Shown: piece after piece, positions 38,918 through 42,770 of the stretch
Layout of the letters: each line of letters begins with the position of its first letter
Position numbering within the stretch: the stretch's first letter is position 1
Assembly (NCBI RefSeq): GCF_002214585.1
Contig: NZ_CP014862.1
Span: 682,001 to 746,000 of the forward strand
From: Thermococcus profundus
GTDB taxonomy: Archaea; Methanobacteriota_B; Thermococci; Thermococcales; Thermococcaceae
Reading direction: 5' to 3'
DNA: 64,000 bases
Notes under the pieces: generated by a model
The model's database searches: none
Seen by the model: only the letters and a program-made list of their open reading frames with translations
What the model was told of the DNA's origin: nothing
Position numbers and translations under genes: made by a program

Positions 38918-41338
38918 TCATTCTTCCTCAACGTAGGGAGCTGTAATGACCTTCCTTATCTCCCTCGCCTTCTTCGGGCCTATGCCTTCAACTTCCTTCA
39001 GCTCCTCCTCTGTGGCGGTGAAGACCCTCTCAACGCTGCCAAAGTGCCTTAAAAGCCTCTTTGCAAGGGTAGCCGAGACGTTTGGAAGGCCCTCGACTAT
39101 GAGCCGCTGCCTCTCGGCAAGTGTTAGTGCCTTCTTCTCGCTCCTCACCCTTACTTCCTTCTTCCTCTCCTCCTGTTCGCGCTTTGCCAGGAGGTAGATG
39201 AACTGTGCCGTCTCCTCCGGCCCGGAGGAGAAGAGTATCGGAACCCCCCAGTCGAGGGTCACCGCCGCTATCGCACCCCTTATGGCGTTGGGGTGGACGT
39301 TCCTTATGCCGTAGAGGTTGCCCTCGATGATTATGACTGGCTTCTCGTAGGCCCTCTTCAGCCTGTCAACCTGGTCGAAGAGGCGACCGTCTATTATGGA
39401 CTGGATGAAGTCGTTGGCGCTCTTCCTCTCTATCCCAACGTCCTCGCTCACAACGTAGTCTGCAACATCGAGGGTTCTAACCTCAACCTCCGCTCCAAGT
39501 TCCCTCAGATGCTTAGGAACTCCGCTCCTCAGCTCGCGGTTGTCCACGTAAACAACTATCCCCTTCGGCTTTCTCACAAAGATGGGCTTTATCGGAAGAT
39601 CCTCGGCGGTTTCTTTCGGCTTCTCGCTGGATTTTTCTTTCGAGGCCGCGGAAACGGCCCCCTCAACTCCGTCAGCATTTATGGCCTCGGCCTTTTCAGG
39701 TTTCTTCGGCTTCAGAAAAGCGTCCAGCGGGGTTATCTTACCCTTAGCCATCTCGGCACTCCCCTTGGGTTCGTTCTCACCTGATTTCACAACCTCATCT
39801 GCCCCTGCATAGGAGCGAACCTTCCCGGACTTTTCCAGCTCCCTCGCTATCTTCTTTATCGCGCTGAACATTCCCCTCTCCTTCCTTTTAGAGGCCCAGT
39901 AGTAGGCTTCATCTCTCGTTCCCTTCGCCATCAATATTACGACCTTCCCTGGCCTGTGTCTTCCCGTTCTTCCCCTCCTTTGTATGCTCCTTATGGCTGA
40001 TGGTACGGGCTCGTAGAATACCACCAAATCCACTTCGGGAACGTCGAGGCCCTCTTCACCCACGCTTGTGGCAACCAGAACGTTGAACTCCCCCCTGGAG
40101 AAGCGCTCCAACGTTTCCTTCTGCTCCCTCTGGCTCATGCCTTTATCCTTTCCCCTGCTGGCCTGCCCTATGAACCTCTCAGCAGAGATTCCCATCGAAG
40201 TGAGCTCCTCGACGATTTTCTTTCCCGTATCGCGGTAGTTCGTGAAGACGATTATCTTGGAGTTCGGTTTTCTCTCCAGTTGCCTTTTGACGAGCTCCTT
40301 CAGCTTCTCCATCTTGGGGTGGTCTACTCCGCTCTCCTTCGCCTGGACGAGGAGGTAGATGACCTTTCTCATGCGCGGGTCTTCCATGAGCTCCCTGCTC
40401 GACTTCGTCCTCCTGTCCTCGCGGAGCTTTCTCAAATATGAGCTCAGGGCTGTGAGGCCCTGGGTTTCTAGGAGTTCAATCGCGTGGAGGAGCTTTACGG
40501 CCTTCGCCTGATGCATTCTGAGCCGTCCTATCTCGTAGTTTCCTCTTGCAACTTCCTGGTTTATCTTTGAGCCCGCCTGGAGGACTTCCCTCTTTGATAT
40601 GTCAGGAGAATAAGTAGAAACGAGCTTGAAGTGGGCGAGGGGCTTGAGGGTCTCCTTAAGCATCTCGCGGAGGAGCGAGCGAACCTCCTTGTATATCCCG
40701 GGGAGATCCACTTTAACCCACTCGAACGCTATCCTCTGAACGTAGGGCTTAACGTCGGGCGAGCTTTCGGTTCTGATCTCGATCCTCTGGATTCCGAGGT
40801 TCTGGATTATCTCCCTTATCTTTTCCTCGTCGCTTCCTGGAGATGCGGTTAATCCAAGAACAAGCGGGTGTTTTGCTGTCTTGAGGTATTCCTTCGCGAT
40901 GAAGACGTAGGAGTAGTTCCCGACCGCGCGGTGAGCCTCGTCTATGACGAGCAGAACAACATCCTCGAGGGAGATCTTTCCTGTGAGAATGTCGTTCTCG
41001 ATGGTTTGGGGGGTTGCGGTGATGACAACGCTGTTCTCCCATACTTCTTTCCTCTTCTCCGGGGAGAGCTCACCGGTGAGGACGTTTATTTTATCTGGCT
41101 GAAGGCTGAACAGCCTTTTGAAGCTCTCGGCGTGCTGGACAGCTAGAGGTTTGGTAGGGGCGAGCATTAGAACCTTCCCGCCGTACTTTGAGAGCCTGTA
41201 GTCGGCTATGAGCATGGCTATCAGGGTTTTTCCAAGGCCCGTCGGGAGGACAACGAGGCAGTTCCACTCTTTACAGTGGGCGTATATAACCTCCTGGTAA
41301 ACGCGCGGTTCTATTAGATCCCTTCTGAGGTACCCCAT
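38918..41338 (-). CDS. hef: Hef helicase-nuclease (XPF/FANCM-like)
   Basis: An 806-residue fork-processing enzyme. The N-terminal SF2 helicase has Walker A PTGLGKT (about 32-38), DEAH in VIDEAHRAV (about 134) and motif VI QRRGRTGR (about 460). The C-terminal XPF nuclease has VYVDNRELRSG and GIERKSANDF (about 600-660). A tandem helix-hairpin-helix follows (GLPNVSATLAKRLL, GIGPKKAREI). It cuts splayed and stalled replication forks. Both activities appear intact. It ends 4 nt from the 3' end of the opposing H/ACA RNA gene. Confidence 0.96.
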   Translation of the reverse strand: MGYLRRDLIEPRVYQEVIYAHCKEWNCLVVLPTGLGKTLIAMLIADYRLSKYGGKVLMLAPTKPLAVQHAESFKRLFSLQPDKINVLTGELSPEKRKEVWENSVVITATPQTIENDILTGKISLEDVVLLVIDEAHRAVGNYSYVFIAKEYLKTAKHPLVLGLTASPGSDEEKIREIIQNLGIQRIEIRTESSPDVKPYVQRIAFEWVKVDLPGIYKEVRSLLREMLKETLKPLAHFKLVSTYSPDISKREVLQAGSKINQEVARGNYEIGRLRMHQAKAVKLLHAIELLETQGLTALSSYLRKLREDRRTKSSRELMEDPRMRKVIYLLVQAKESGVDHPKMEKLKELVKRQLERKPNSKIIVFTNYRDTGKKIVEELTSMGISAERFIGQASRGKDKGMSQREQKETLERFSRGEFNVLVATSVGEEGLDVPEVDLVVFYEPVPSAIRSIQRRGRTGRHRPGKVVILMAKGTRDEAYYWASKRKERGMFSAIKKIARELEKSGKVRSYAGADEVVKSGENEPKGSAEMAKGKITPLDAFLKPKKPEKAEAINADGVEGAVSAASKEKSSEKPKETAEDLPIKPIFVRKPKGIVVYVDNRELRSGVPKHLRELGAEVEVRTLDVADYVVSEDVGIERKSANDFIQSIIDGRLFDQVDRLKRAYEKPVIIIEGNLYGIRNVHPNAIRGAIAAVTLDWGVPILFSSGPEETAQFIYLLAKREQEERKKEVRVRSEKKALTLAERQRLIVEGLPNVSATLAKRLLRHFGSVERVFTATEEELKEVEGIGPKKAREIRKVITAPYVEEE

Positions 41339-41372
41339 ATTCTTGGGGACGGTGGGGAGGATAAAAAGCTTC

Positions 41373-41735
41373 TCATGGGATACTGAACAGCAAGCCCGTT
41401 GTCGTCAGGGCGAGCTGGAGCGGGGACGTCCCCGTGAGGAGAAACGCGTTGTTGACAACCGGCAGGGCTTTTAACAGGACGAAGAACGGGGGAAAGTATC
41501 CCGCGGCAGGCACCCTCTCCGCTAGCTTGATGGAGAGGAGTATGAGGGCGATTCCGAGGATCGTGAAGAGGGCGAAGCTTCCAAAGAACAGGGTCGGATT
41601 GGAGATCCGGGAGGCTATAACTGGGTTCCCCTCAGCGAATCCCCTTCTCACGCCTGCCCACGTTGTAAGGGCGTCGAGCACTGAGAAAACTGAGAAGGCC
41701 AGTGCGTATTTCAGCCCCTCAGTTTTAACCCCCAT
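41373..41735 (-). CDS. Small membrane protein (DUF5658-like)
   Basis: A 120-residue protein with four hydrophobic helices. The N-terminal motif VLDALTTWAGVRRGFAEGNPV resembles DUF5658 (LDAxTTxxGxxxGxxExNP). Function unknown. A TATA-like GTATTTAAGG lies about 30-38 nt upstream, with the 22-bp palindrome beyond it. Confidence 0.7.
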   Translation of the reverse strand: MGVKTEGLKYALAFSVFSVLDALTTWAGVRRGFAEGNPVIASRISNPTLFFGSFALFTILGIALILLSIKLAERVPAAGYFPPFFVLLKALPVVNNAFLLTGTSPLQLALTTTGLLFSIP

Positions 41736-41792
41736 TTTGATCGTACTTTTTACGCTCCCATTCCTTAAATACTTTGTGCATTAGTCAGAACC

Positions 41793-41814
41793 TACATGTG
41801 TAGGTACACATGTA
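41793..41814. promoter_or_regulatory. 22-bp palindromic operator between divergent genes
   Basis: Perfect 10-bp arms TACATGTGTA and TACACATGTA are separated by GG. The site lies between the two divergent TATA boxes (about 41765-41774 minus, 41824-41833 plus), immediately upstream of each. It could serve one dimeric regulator acting on both the DUF5658-like gene and the 141-residue gene. The cognate regulator is unknown. Confidence 0.6.
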
Positions 41815-41854
41815 TGCTGGCAAACGTTTTAACTCCCCCATCTAAGTGGGCAAC

Positions 41855-42280
41855 ATGCTCCTCACTAGGCACGCGAGGGAGAGGCTCATCAAGAGGCTCG
41901 CAAAGAGGAGAAGCTCCGAGAGGGTTTACCGGGCCCTGTGGGACTTCCTAGATCGCTCGAAAAAGCTCATGATTAACGACGAGGTCGTGATCTTCACCGA
42001 CGGGAGGAAGAGCCTCGTCTGCGTTAAGCTACCCTGCGAAAGGCTTCCACTTGAGGAAATTCGGACGAGGGTAAGGGGAATAAGCGAACCCTACGAGTGC
42101 GTTTTTCCAGACGGAAAGCTGGGGAAGACGACAGTTCCCTCTAAATTCCTCGAGATGATACCCGACGGAATCTACTGCTTCTACCTCAACCGCGAGAAAA
42201 GGTCGCTCTACGTTGGAAGTGAAAGCCCGCTCCTGGCCGTAACCCTGAGGCCAGCCAAGAGATGGGAGAGGGACTCGTGA
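41855..42280 (+). CDS. Hypothetical protein (DUF4258-like N-terminus)
   Basis: A 141-residue protein. The start [18 protein letters not shown] resembles the DUF4258-type xTxHAxxRLxxR start, followed by small beta strands ([15 protein letters not shown]) and a second half with [22 protein letters not shown]-like ACGTTTTAAC precedes it closely, so the leader is very short. Function unknown. Confidence 0.65.
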
Positions 42281-42323: not shown

Positions 42324-42770
42324 ATGGATGTGAAAAAGCTCGTTAAAGCCCGCGATCGTGTGGTTCTTTGGAAGCTAAAGATAACGAGGGCGGCCAGCTA
42401 CCTCAGCATCGCGAACAGCTTTATGATCCTATTCGTCTTCGCTAAGGAACTCTACTCAATTCCCTGGATAGCGGAGAACTTCAGCTTCCGGGAGTTCGTG
42501 CTCCTGGCCTACGGTCTGGCCGTTGTCGGCTTCATAGCCCTTGCGGAGATCGACTGGCACTTCATGTACAAGAGGGAGCAGAGCTACGCCCTAACGCGGA
42601 ACCCCCTCCTCCCCGCCCAGTGCTTCACCGCGGAATACCTCCTTGAAAAGGCCGCTGAGGAGGGCAGGATAACGGAGGAAGAAGCGGAAAAAATAATGGC
42701 ATCCCTCAGGCTGGCTGGCTGTCCTCAAGGGGGACGACGGTTATCTCGCCGAAGGGCTCCTCCTGAATGA
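42324..42770 (+). CDS. Hypothetical membrane protein overlapping the 3' end of scpA
   Basis: A 148-residue protein. Two hydrophobic segments (about 25-42 and 58-75) are followed by a helical acidic region (EKAAEEGRITEEEAEKIMASL). The last 20 residues (GGRRLSRRRAPPE) are encoded antisense to the end of scpA, a 65-nt overlap, and look like readthrough past a lost stop. ATG follows GGTGAGATC. Family not recognised. Confidence 0.65.
   Translation: MDVKKLVKARDRVVLWKLKITRAASYLSIANSFMILFVFAKELYSIPWIAENFSFREFVLLAYGLAVVGFIALAEIDWHFMYKREQSYALTRNPLLPAQCFTAEYLLEKAAEEGRITEEEAEKIMASLRLAGCPQGGRRLSRRRAPPE

What the first reader, a model, noticed from the sequence alone, without database searches (positions are those of the whole stretch)
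41793..41814. 22-bp palindrome between two divergent promoters
Perfect 10-bp arms with a 2-bp spacer sit between the TATA boxes of a DUF5658-like gene and an unknown 141-residue gene. The arm TACATGTGTA does not match Thermococcales operators I know (SurR, Phr, TGM). It probably marks an undescribed regulon.
Basis: seen in the sequence. Interest (0 to 1): 0.5.

Follow-up and report, generated by a model that had tools for sequence, protein, structure and literature searches.

The report
Motility-switch binding site, new target gene
The palindrome is most likely a docking site for EarA, the switch protein that turns on swimming in these heat-loving archaea, placed in front of a membrane-protein gene whose role is unknown.

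Summary
The palindrome is real (41793-41814, perfect arms). As a palindrome it is not rare: simulations give 0.87 of this class per window. It matters because it is conserved. The same block lies before the DUF5658 TATA box in 22 of 30 DUF5658 loci read, own included. Upstream of the divergent 141-residue gene it is found in 21 of 27 genomes with DUF5658 and 0 of 50 without, so it belongs to DUF5658. A profile trained only on DUF5658 promoters next hits, in the own genome, the cheR/chemoreceptor promoter and the archaellin promoter beside a Pfam EarA gene. The site therefore looks like a pair of EarA boxes. The motif also precedes chemoreceptor, cheY and DUF835 genes, and resembles a 23-bp motif of unclear function published for T. 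kodakarensis in 2021. Two genomes keep the site without EarA. In one published strain TK1020 (DUF5658 by my identification) rises while archaellum genes fall, so the sign of control is open. Binding is not shown.

The parts
41793..41814 (.). 22-bp palindrome: two adjacent 10-bp dyads TACATGTGTA / TACACATGTA, 12-bp period; read as two EarA box slots
41782..41815 (-). whole conserved operator block as matched by profile R1 (repeat plus GGTTCTGACTA toward the DUF5658 promoter)
41765..41771 (-). TATA box of the DUF5658 gene (TATTTAA), at the same distance from the block in all 21 orthologous promoters scored, of 28 given
41373..41735 (-). DUF5658 membrane-protein gene (120 aa; helices 3-30, 47-72, 76-100, 105-117 in the predicted model); proposed EarA target
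38918..41338 (-). hef (Hef nuclease), directly downstream of DUF5658 on the same strand; has a TATA-like sequence of its own by eye, so co-transcription is uncertain
41827..41832 (+). TATA-like TTTTAA of the divergent 141-aa gene
   Evidence: by eye
41855..42280 (+). divergent 141-aa gene, no Pfam family above cut-off; found in 77 of 94 genomes, 50 of them without DUF5658 and without the block

Best explanation
The palindrome is an operator for EarA, the winged-helix archaellum regulator, in the promoter of the DUF5658 membrane-protein gene. Two box slots 12 bp apart, each a near-dyad TACATATGTA, sit just upstream of the BRE/TATA, where EarA bound at the archaellin promoter is thought to help TFB onto a weak BRE. 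DUF5658 would thus belong to a motility regulon together with archaellins, cheR/chemoreceptor genes, cheY-cheA, ODP-chemoreceptor pairs and a DUF835 gene. Shown: conservation, fixed promoter spacing, shared motif with archaellin and che promoters, an EarA gene beside the archaellin site. Inferred: that EarA binds here, and the sign of its effect. The boxes face the DUF5658 promoter in the inverted geometry also seen at ODP-chemoreceptor genes. I put activation somewhat ahead of repression.
For: Block before DUF5658 in 22 of 30 loci; upstream of the 141-aa gene in 21 of 27 genomes with DUF5658, 0 of 50 without. Same distance to TATA in all 21 promoters scored of 28 (18 if the score cut-off used for the other classes is applied). 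In G050 and G055 the 141-aa gene is not found, yet the block stays. Profile R1, built from DUF5658 promoters only, finds in the own genome cheR/MCP (E 5e-4), archaellin/earA (0.01), DUF835 (0.12) and an MCP (0.25). Of the 30 best earA loci, 24 hold a site above the best of 30 shuffled loci; the other 6 have an R1 hit 110 bp from an archaellin match. 28 of the 30 best cheR loci pass the same score. Pattern search in 94 genomes: 143 matches in 58 genomes (my sum) against 2 for the reversed control. The 111-aa gene beside the archaellins is Pfam EarA, 2e-33. The published EarA box and its place upstream of the BRE agree. DUF5658 co-occurs with earA: 29/2/16/14 in 61 same-genus genomes, p 0.0004, not corrected for phylogeny.
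Against: G020 and G041 keep DUF5658 and the block but have no earA, archaellin or cheR match; weak EarA-profile matches there look like chance. G041 also keeps the DUF835 site. Of the 14 same-genus genomes without archaellin, 5 (G020, G035, G041, G049, G066) still have an R1 match at E<=0.1. So another regulator, or recent loss, is needed there. In G014, G033 and G044 DUF5658 lacks the block although EarA is present; G037 and G057 have only weak variants. TK1020, which I identify as the T. kodakarensis DUF5658 gene, rose 3.49-fold in histone mutant TS622 while archaellum and che genes fell: opposite to simple co-activation. I found no report of EarA binding here.
Confidence: 0.84

Rival explanations
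1. The block is bound by a different regulator with a similar box, kept for DUF5658 and DUF835 independently of motility; EarA reads only the archaellin and che versions.
For: G041 keeps DUF5658 and DUF835 sites without a convincing EarA-family protein; DUF5658 in G041 versus the own genome has dN/dS 0.14; TK1020 moves opposite to archaellum genes; the DUF5658 block has an extra conserved GGTTCTGACTA not seen at archaellin promoters.
Against: The 12-bp box pair is the same at DUF5658, archaellin and che promoters, enough that a DUF5658-only profile finds the others genome-wide. Of the 14 same-genus genomes without archaellin, 9 have no R1 match at E<=0.1 (G017, G027, G031, G038, G040, G048, G056, G060, G061), 5 do. 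In G020 the TATA has lost a base, as expected of decay.
Confidence: 0.12
2. The conserved block is a DNA-topology or chromatin-sensitive promoter element rather than a regulator's operator, as suggested for the 23-bp motif of T. kodakarensis.
For: Genes with the 23-bp motif respond to gyrase and to histone mutations; the authors suggest topology sensitivity, and the main text does not contain the word EarA (PMC8643681).
Against: The motif resembles the EarA box array of the archaellin promoter that EarA is known to control. Sequence-specific 12-bp boxes at fixed distance from TATA fit a protein site.
Confidence: 0.03
3. Chance palindrome without function.
For: Palindromes of this class are expected 0.87 times per window.
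Against: 21 of 27 against 0 of 50 genomes, the same spacing to TATA in all 21 promoters scored of 28, and 143 against 2 control matches.
Confidence: 0.01

Closest known systems
EarA boxes of the Thermococcales archaellin (arlB0) promoter (PMC10665913; abstract, whole Results and found passages read)
   Same: A(C/G)(C/G)TACA(T/C) boxes in adjacent repeats, just upstream of the BRE; own archaellin promoter has ACCTACATATGC-ACCTACATGTCC-ACCTACAC
   Different: At DUF5658 the site is near-palindromic, the promoter-proximal box is inverted, and the array is offset by half a 12-bp period relative to archaellin, cheR and DUF835 promoters. The parts of the paper I read report the motif at arlB0 only.
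23-bp motif TTTGTGTABSTGBTTATGTAGGT of T. kodakarensis fla, che, TK0156, TK2147, TK1139, TK1605 promoters (PMC8643681; section 17 part 1 and found passages read)
   Same: Its reverse complement is two EarA-type boxes 12 bp apart; best match 1 mismatch at the G024 che site, 2 at the archaellin site, 3 at the ODP-receptor site
   Different: The DUF5658 site has 5 mismatches, no better than the best of 200 shuffles in the own locus, and the paper reports no further high-scoring genome hit beyond its six; it gives no regulator in the parts read.
EarA sites of Methanococcus maripaludis (PMC5512572; found passages read)
   Same: several short sites immediately upstream of the BRE
   Different: four 6-bp sites at the fla promoter in a methanogen; not compared base by base here

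Membership tests
EarA operator | boxes A(C/G)(C/G)TACA(T/C), repeated adjacently | tested here: met
   ACCTACAC on the minus strand and ACCTACAT on the plus strand; 12-bp period; the other minus-strand slot reads GCATACAT, which departs from the published consensus
EarA operator | fixed position upstream of the BRE/TATA | tested here: met
   same distance to TATA in all 21 DUF5658 promoters scored of 28; about 9 nt by eye between the proximal, inverted box and the BRE-like stretch; but half a period off the archaellin register
EarA operator | an EarA gene in the same genome | tested here: met
   own genome: PF07381 2e-33. Not met in G020 and G041, which keep the site
EarA operator | same motif as the genome's own archaellin promoter | tested here: met
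   R1, trained without archaellin sites, hits 806159-806180 at E 0.01; R2 also hits it but was trained on it
EarA operator | bound by EarA; target expression depends on earA | not testable with these tools
   no binding or deletion data for this promoter found in the papers read
23-bp motif of PMC8643681 | good match to the published consensus | tested here: inconclusive
   5 mismatches of 23 at the own and the G024 DUF5658 site; best of 200 one-strand shuffles 5 and 6
SurR operator | GTTnnnAAC (recalled) | tested here: not met
   by eye: the conserved flank is GGTTCTGAC, not GTTnnnAAC

The most novel reading that the evidence does not exclude
EarA is a two-way switch for a whole motility regulon: it activates archaella, chemotaxis and receptor genes, and at the inverted palindromic site it represses DUF5658, a membrane protein made when cells stop swimming. 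The unexplained supercoiling- and chromatin-responsive 23-bp motif of T. kodakarensis would then simply be the EarA regulon.
Probability: 0.27. Interest if true: 0.65.

Novelty: new member of a known kind. Interest (0 to 1): 0.5.

Why it matters
The EarA papers I saw report no target beyond the archaellum cluster, and one asks for experiments to find others. Here the same box array precedes chemotaxis, receptor and two unknown-function genes across a family. That gives a concrete regulon to test, offers a reader for a published motif of unclear function, and gives a functional lead for DUF5658 (a word held by 0 papers of the library).

Tried and rejected
Palindrome as evidence by itself: rejected, chance level. 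Joint regulation of the 141-aa gene: not favoured, because the block is absent upstream of it in 50 of 50 genomes without DUF5658 and stays in G050/G055, where that gene is not found. The half-period offset at DUF5658 as a reason for repression: weakened, because ODP-chemoreceptor promoters have the same inverted geometry (7 nt from box to TTAA, by eye, in 6 ODP loci and in 2 loci with a 409-aa gene at that place), and TK1605-TK1606 fall together with the archaellum genes in TS620. Relic earA genes in G020 and G041: the weak profile matches gained no support by tblastn (best E 0.24, elsewhere in the stretch). Structure of DUF5658: helical membrane model, mean pLDDT 86, no PDB fold match at E<=0.001; no PDB sequence relative at E<=1, none for EarA at E<=0.1. 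Extra pattern sites judged chance or unclear: L244 (inside a coding region), L245 and L250.

Rows dropped and limits of counts: A1 used 19 of the 22 block-bearing DUF5658 loci; L041, L044 and L058 were left out as near-duplicates. A2 used 26 chosen cores (6 DUF5658, 20 archaellin/cheR), so R2 is not independent of those promoters; R1 is. The earA and cheR loci are the 30 best of the matches in 72 and 34 genomes. Shuffles were one per earA locus; none were made of cheR loci. The DUF835 loci came in through the site itself, so their count is not a test. The 18 places were picked by me from 143. In one search the score cut-off was 0 for DUF5658 and 10 for the rest. DUF5658 was found in 31 genomes; 30 loci were read, 1 (G063) had no locus.

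Full report
What is there. The window is 682001-746000 of the main contig of a 2.04-Mb genome. The palindrome TACATGTGTA-GG-TACACATGTA is at 41793-41814, between the TATA box of a DUF5658 gene (minus strand, 41373-41735; PF18902, 1.7e-8) and that of a 141-aa gene (plus strand, 41855-42280). hef (Hef nuclease) follows DUF5658 on the same strand. As a palindrome it is unremarkable: 2 perfect palindromes with 10-bp arms and 0-10 bp spacer in the window, 0.87 expected. It has no second copy in the genome at up to 3 mismatches, and its arm TACATRTGTA occurs nowhere else in the genome.

Conservation. In 94 Thermococcaceae genomes the 141-aa gene is found in 77 and DUF5658 in 31, all 31 in the window's own genus. 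I read the upstream region of all 77 copies of the 141-aa gene and the promoters of 30 DUF5658 genes. Of the 30, 22 have the block and a TATA box at the expected place (one, L035, with a base lost), 3 (L053, L056, L059) have variant boxes without the usual TATA, 3 (L042, L043, L045) have no block, and 2 (L060, L061) are distant homologues elsewhere without it. In 21 promoters aligned on TATA the consensus is taCatatGta..Taca.aTG.AgGTT.TGACta....a.AAAGTAtTTAA; mean majority frequency is 0.68 in the block, 0.43 further upstream and 0.49 downstream. Upstream of the 141-aa gene the block scores above 8.1 in 21 of 27 genomes that have DUF5658 and in 0 of 50 that do not (highest 1.8); the six exceptions are G014, G033, G044, G037, G057 and G052. 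The profile was trained on 19 of these promoters, so the 21 are partly built in; the 0 of 50 are not. In L057 and L058 (G055, G050) the 141-aa gene is not found and the block is kept. So the site belongs to DUF5658.

What else carries it. Profile R1 was built only from 19 DUF5658 promoters. In the own genome its next hits are 1160135-1160162 (E 5e-4) between cheR-cheY-cheB and a chemoreceptor-cheW pair, 806159-806180 (0.01) between archaellin genes and a 111-aa gene, 85116-85134 (0.12) before a DUF835 gene and 1034538-1034556 (0.25) before a 751-aa chemoreceptor. CheR, archaellin, chemoreceptor and DUF835 were confirmed by Pfam and the 111-aa gene is Pfam EarA, 2e-33, the archaellum regulator; cheY, cheB and cheW are named by eye. 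Calibration of the profile is shortened, so E-values are rough.

Across the family, 24 of the 30 best earA loci hold a site scoring above the best of 30 shuffled loci (8.1), and 28 of the 30 best cheR loci pass the same score (L180 and L181 do not). The 6 remaining earA loci (G023, G025, G039, G042, G043, G062) have an R1 hit 110 bp from an archaellin match further off. At E<=0.1, R1 matches 77 of 94 genomes. Seven DUF835 loci share the site, but they were fetched by it; an eighth is L257. The pattern CCTACAYRNGYRCCTACAY at up to 1 mismatch gives 143 matches in 58 of 94 genomes (my addition of the columns) against 2 for the reversed control; G017 and G049, which lack earA and archaellin, have 1 and 2 of the 143. 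I read 18 chosen places: 13 precede motility-type genes: ODP beta-lactamase plus chemoreceptor pairs (6: L242, L247, L248, L254, L255, L259), chemoreceptors or receptor-like proteins (5: L243, L246, L249, L253, L258), cheY next to cheA (L256), and DUF835 (L257, counted here because of the shared promoter); 2 (L251, L252) precede an unclassified 409-aa gene, 1 is inside a coding region (L244), 2 are unclear (L245, L250). Pfam was run for L243, L246, L248, L249 and L256, the others are by likeness. The own genome also has boxes before cheY-cheA.

Anatomy. Boxes repeat every 12 bp. From the end of the 26-bp two-box core to the TATA, archaellin promoters have 25 bp in 21 of 24 scored (others 13, 13, 37; 30 given), cheR promoters 11-12 in 26 of 27 scored (30 given), DUF835 13 in 7 of 7, DUF5658 18 in 21 of 21 scored (28 given; three of these score below 10). 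These are about multiples of 12 plus one, except DUF5658, which is half a period off. By eye the promoter-proximal box at DUF5658 is inverted (ATGTAGGT), as at ODP-chemoreceptor genes, where 7 nt separate it from TTAA. So there are two geometries, direct and inverted.

What is known. PMC10665913 (abstract, whole Results and found passages) shows EarA is required for archaella in P. [quoted passage not shown] PMC5512572 (passages) describes four EarA sites upstream of the BRE in M. maripaludis. [quoted passage not shown] PMC8643681 (section 17 part 1 and passages) reports a 23-bp motif in six T. kodakarensis intergenic sequences (fla, che, TK0156, TK2147, TK1139, TK1605 by its text) whose genes respond to gyrase and oppositely to histone mutations, calls its function unclear, and does not contain the word EarA in its main text. 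Its reverse complement is two EarA-type boxes 12 bp apart; best match 1 mismatch at the G024 che site, 2 at the archaellin site. I found no paper joining the two: searches for EarA with Thermococcus and chemotaxis (2 papers), EarA with supercoiling and archaell (2 papers), EarA/archaellum/regulon terms (51 papers, 10 listed), DUF5658 (0), TK1020/TK1021 (4) and TK1020/TK1605/TK1606 (3). PMC5517150 and PMC12713403 were seen only in listings, so a remark in them is possible.

Expression. PMC8155482 (section 19 whole, passages elsewhere) reports in histone-mutant strains strong falls of TK0038-TK0049 and TK0629-TK0639 (TS620 and TS622); TK1605 -4.09 and TK1606 -4.11 are in its TS620 list, and TK1020, a hypothetical membrane protein, is up 3.49-fold in its TS622 list; TK1020 is in neither top-30 list of TS620. 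TK1021 is hef (PMC4471258, passages), and in G024, which I take for T. kodakarensis, DUF5658 lies directly upstream of hef; so TK1020 is most likely DUF5658. This is one strain in one study and may act through chromatin, but it runs against plain co-activation.

Against. G020 and G041 have DUF5658 and the block but no earA, archaellin or cheR match. G020's TATA has lost a base; G041's promoter is intact and it also keeps the DUF835 site. Of 14 same-genus genomes without archaellin, 9 have no R1 match at E<=0.1 and 5 do. Recent loss of motility or a second regulator could explain this. Co-occurrence in the own genus is 29 with both DUF5658 and earA, 2 DUF5658 only, 16 earA only, 14 neither (p 0.0004; p 0.03 in the 49 better genomes), without correction for shared descent.

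Verdict. An EarA operator at a new target gene: a new member of a known kind, in a regulon only partly described.

Noticed in passing
G024 loci L144, L189, L248: The 23-bp motif of unclear function in PMC8643681 reads as an EarA box array (best matches 2, 1 and 3 mismatches at archaellin, che and ODP-receptor sites).
   Followed up: partly
window 38918-41735: DUF5658 lies next to hef in 28 of 30 loci; whether a motility promoter also feeds a DNA-repair gene is untested.
   Followed up: partly
G041 (L033, L218) and G020 (L035, L230): EarA-type sites kept at DUF5658 and DUF835 genes in genomes without EarA, archaellin or cheR matches.
   Followed up: partly
own genome 85116-85139 (L119, L224): DUF835 gene with an EarA-type promoter shared by several relatives; function unknown.
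   Followed up: partly
own genome 162731-162749 (L242): ODP-type beta-lactamase plus chemoreceptor-like pair behind an inverted EarA-type site: possible oxygen-sensing taxis unit.
   Followed up: partly
window 41855-42280: 141-aa protein found in 77 of 94 genomes, no Pfam family above cut-off and no NCBIfam family.
   Followed up: no
window 39211-39231: Second perfect 10-bp-arm palindrome (1-bp spacer), inside hef.
   Followed up: no
window 41576-41589 and 42363-42376: 14-nt perfect inverted repeat, 773 nt apart, between DUF5658 and the 148-aa ORF.
   Followed up: no
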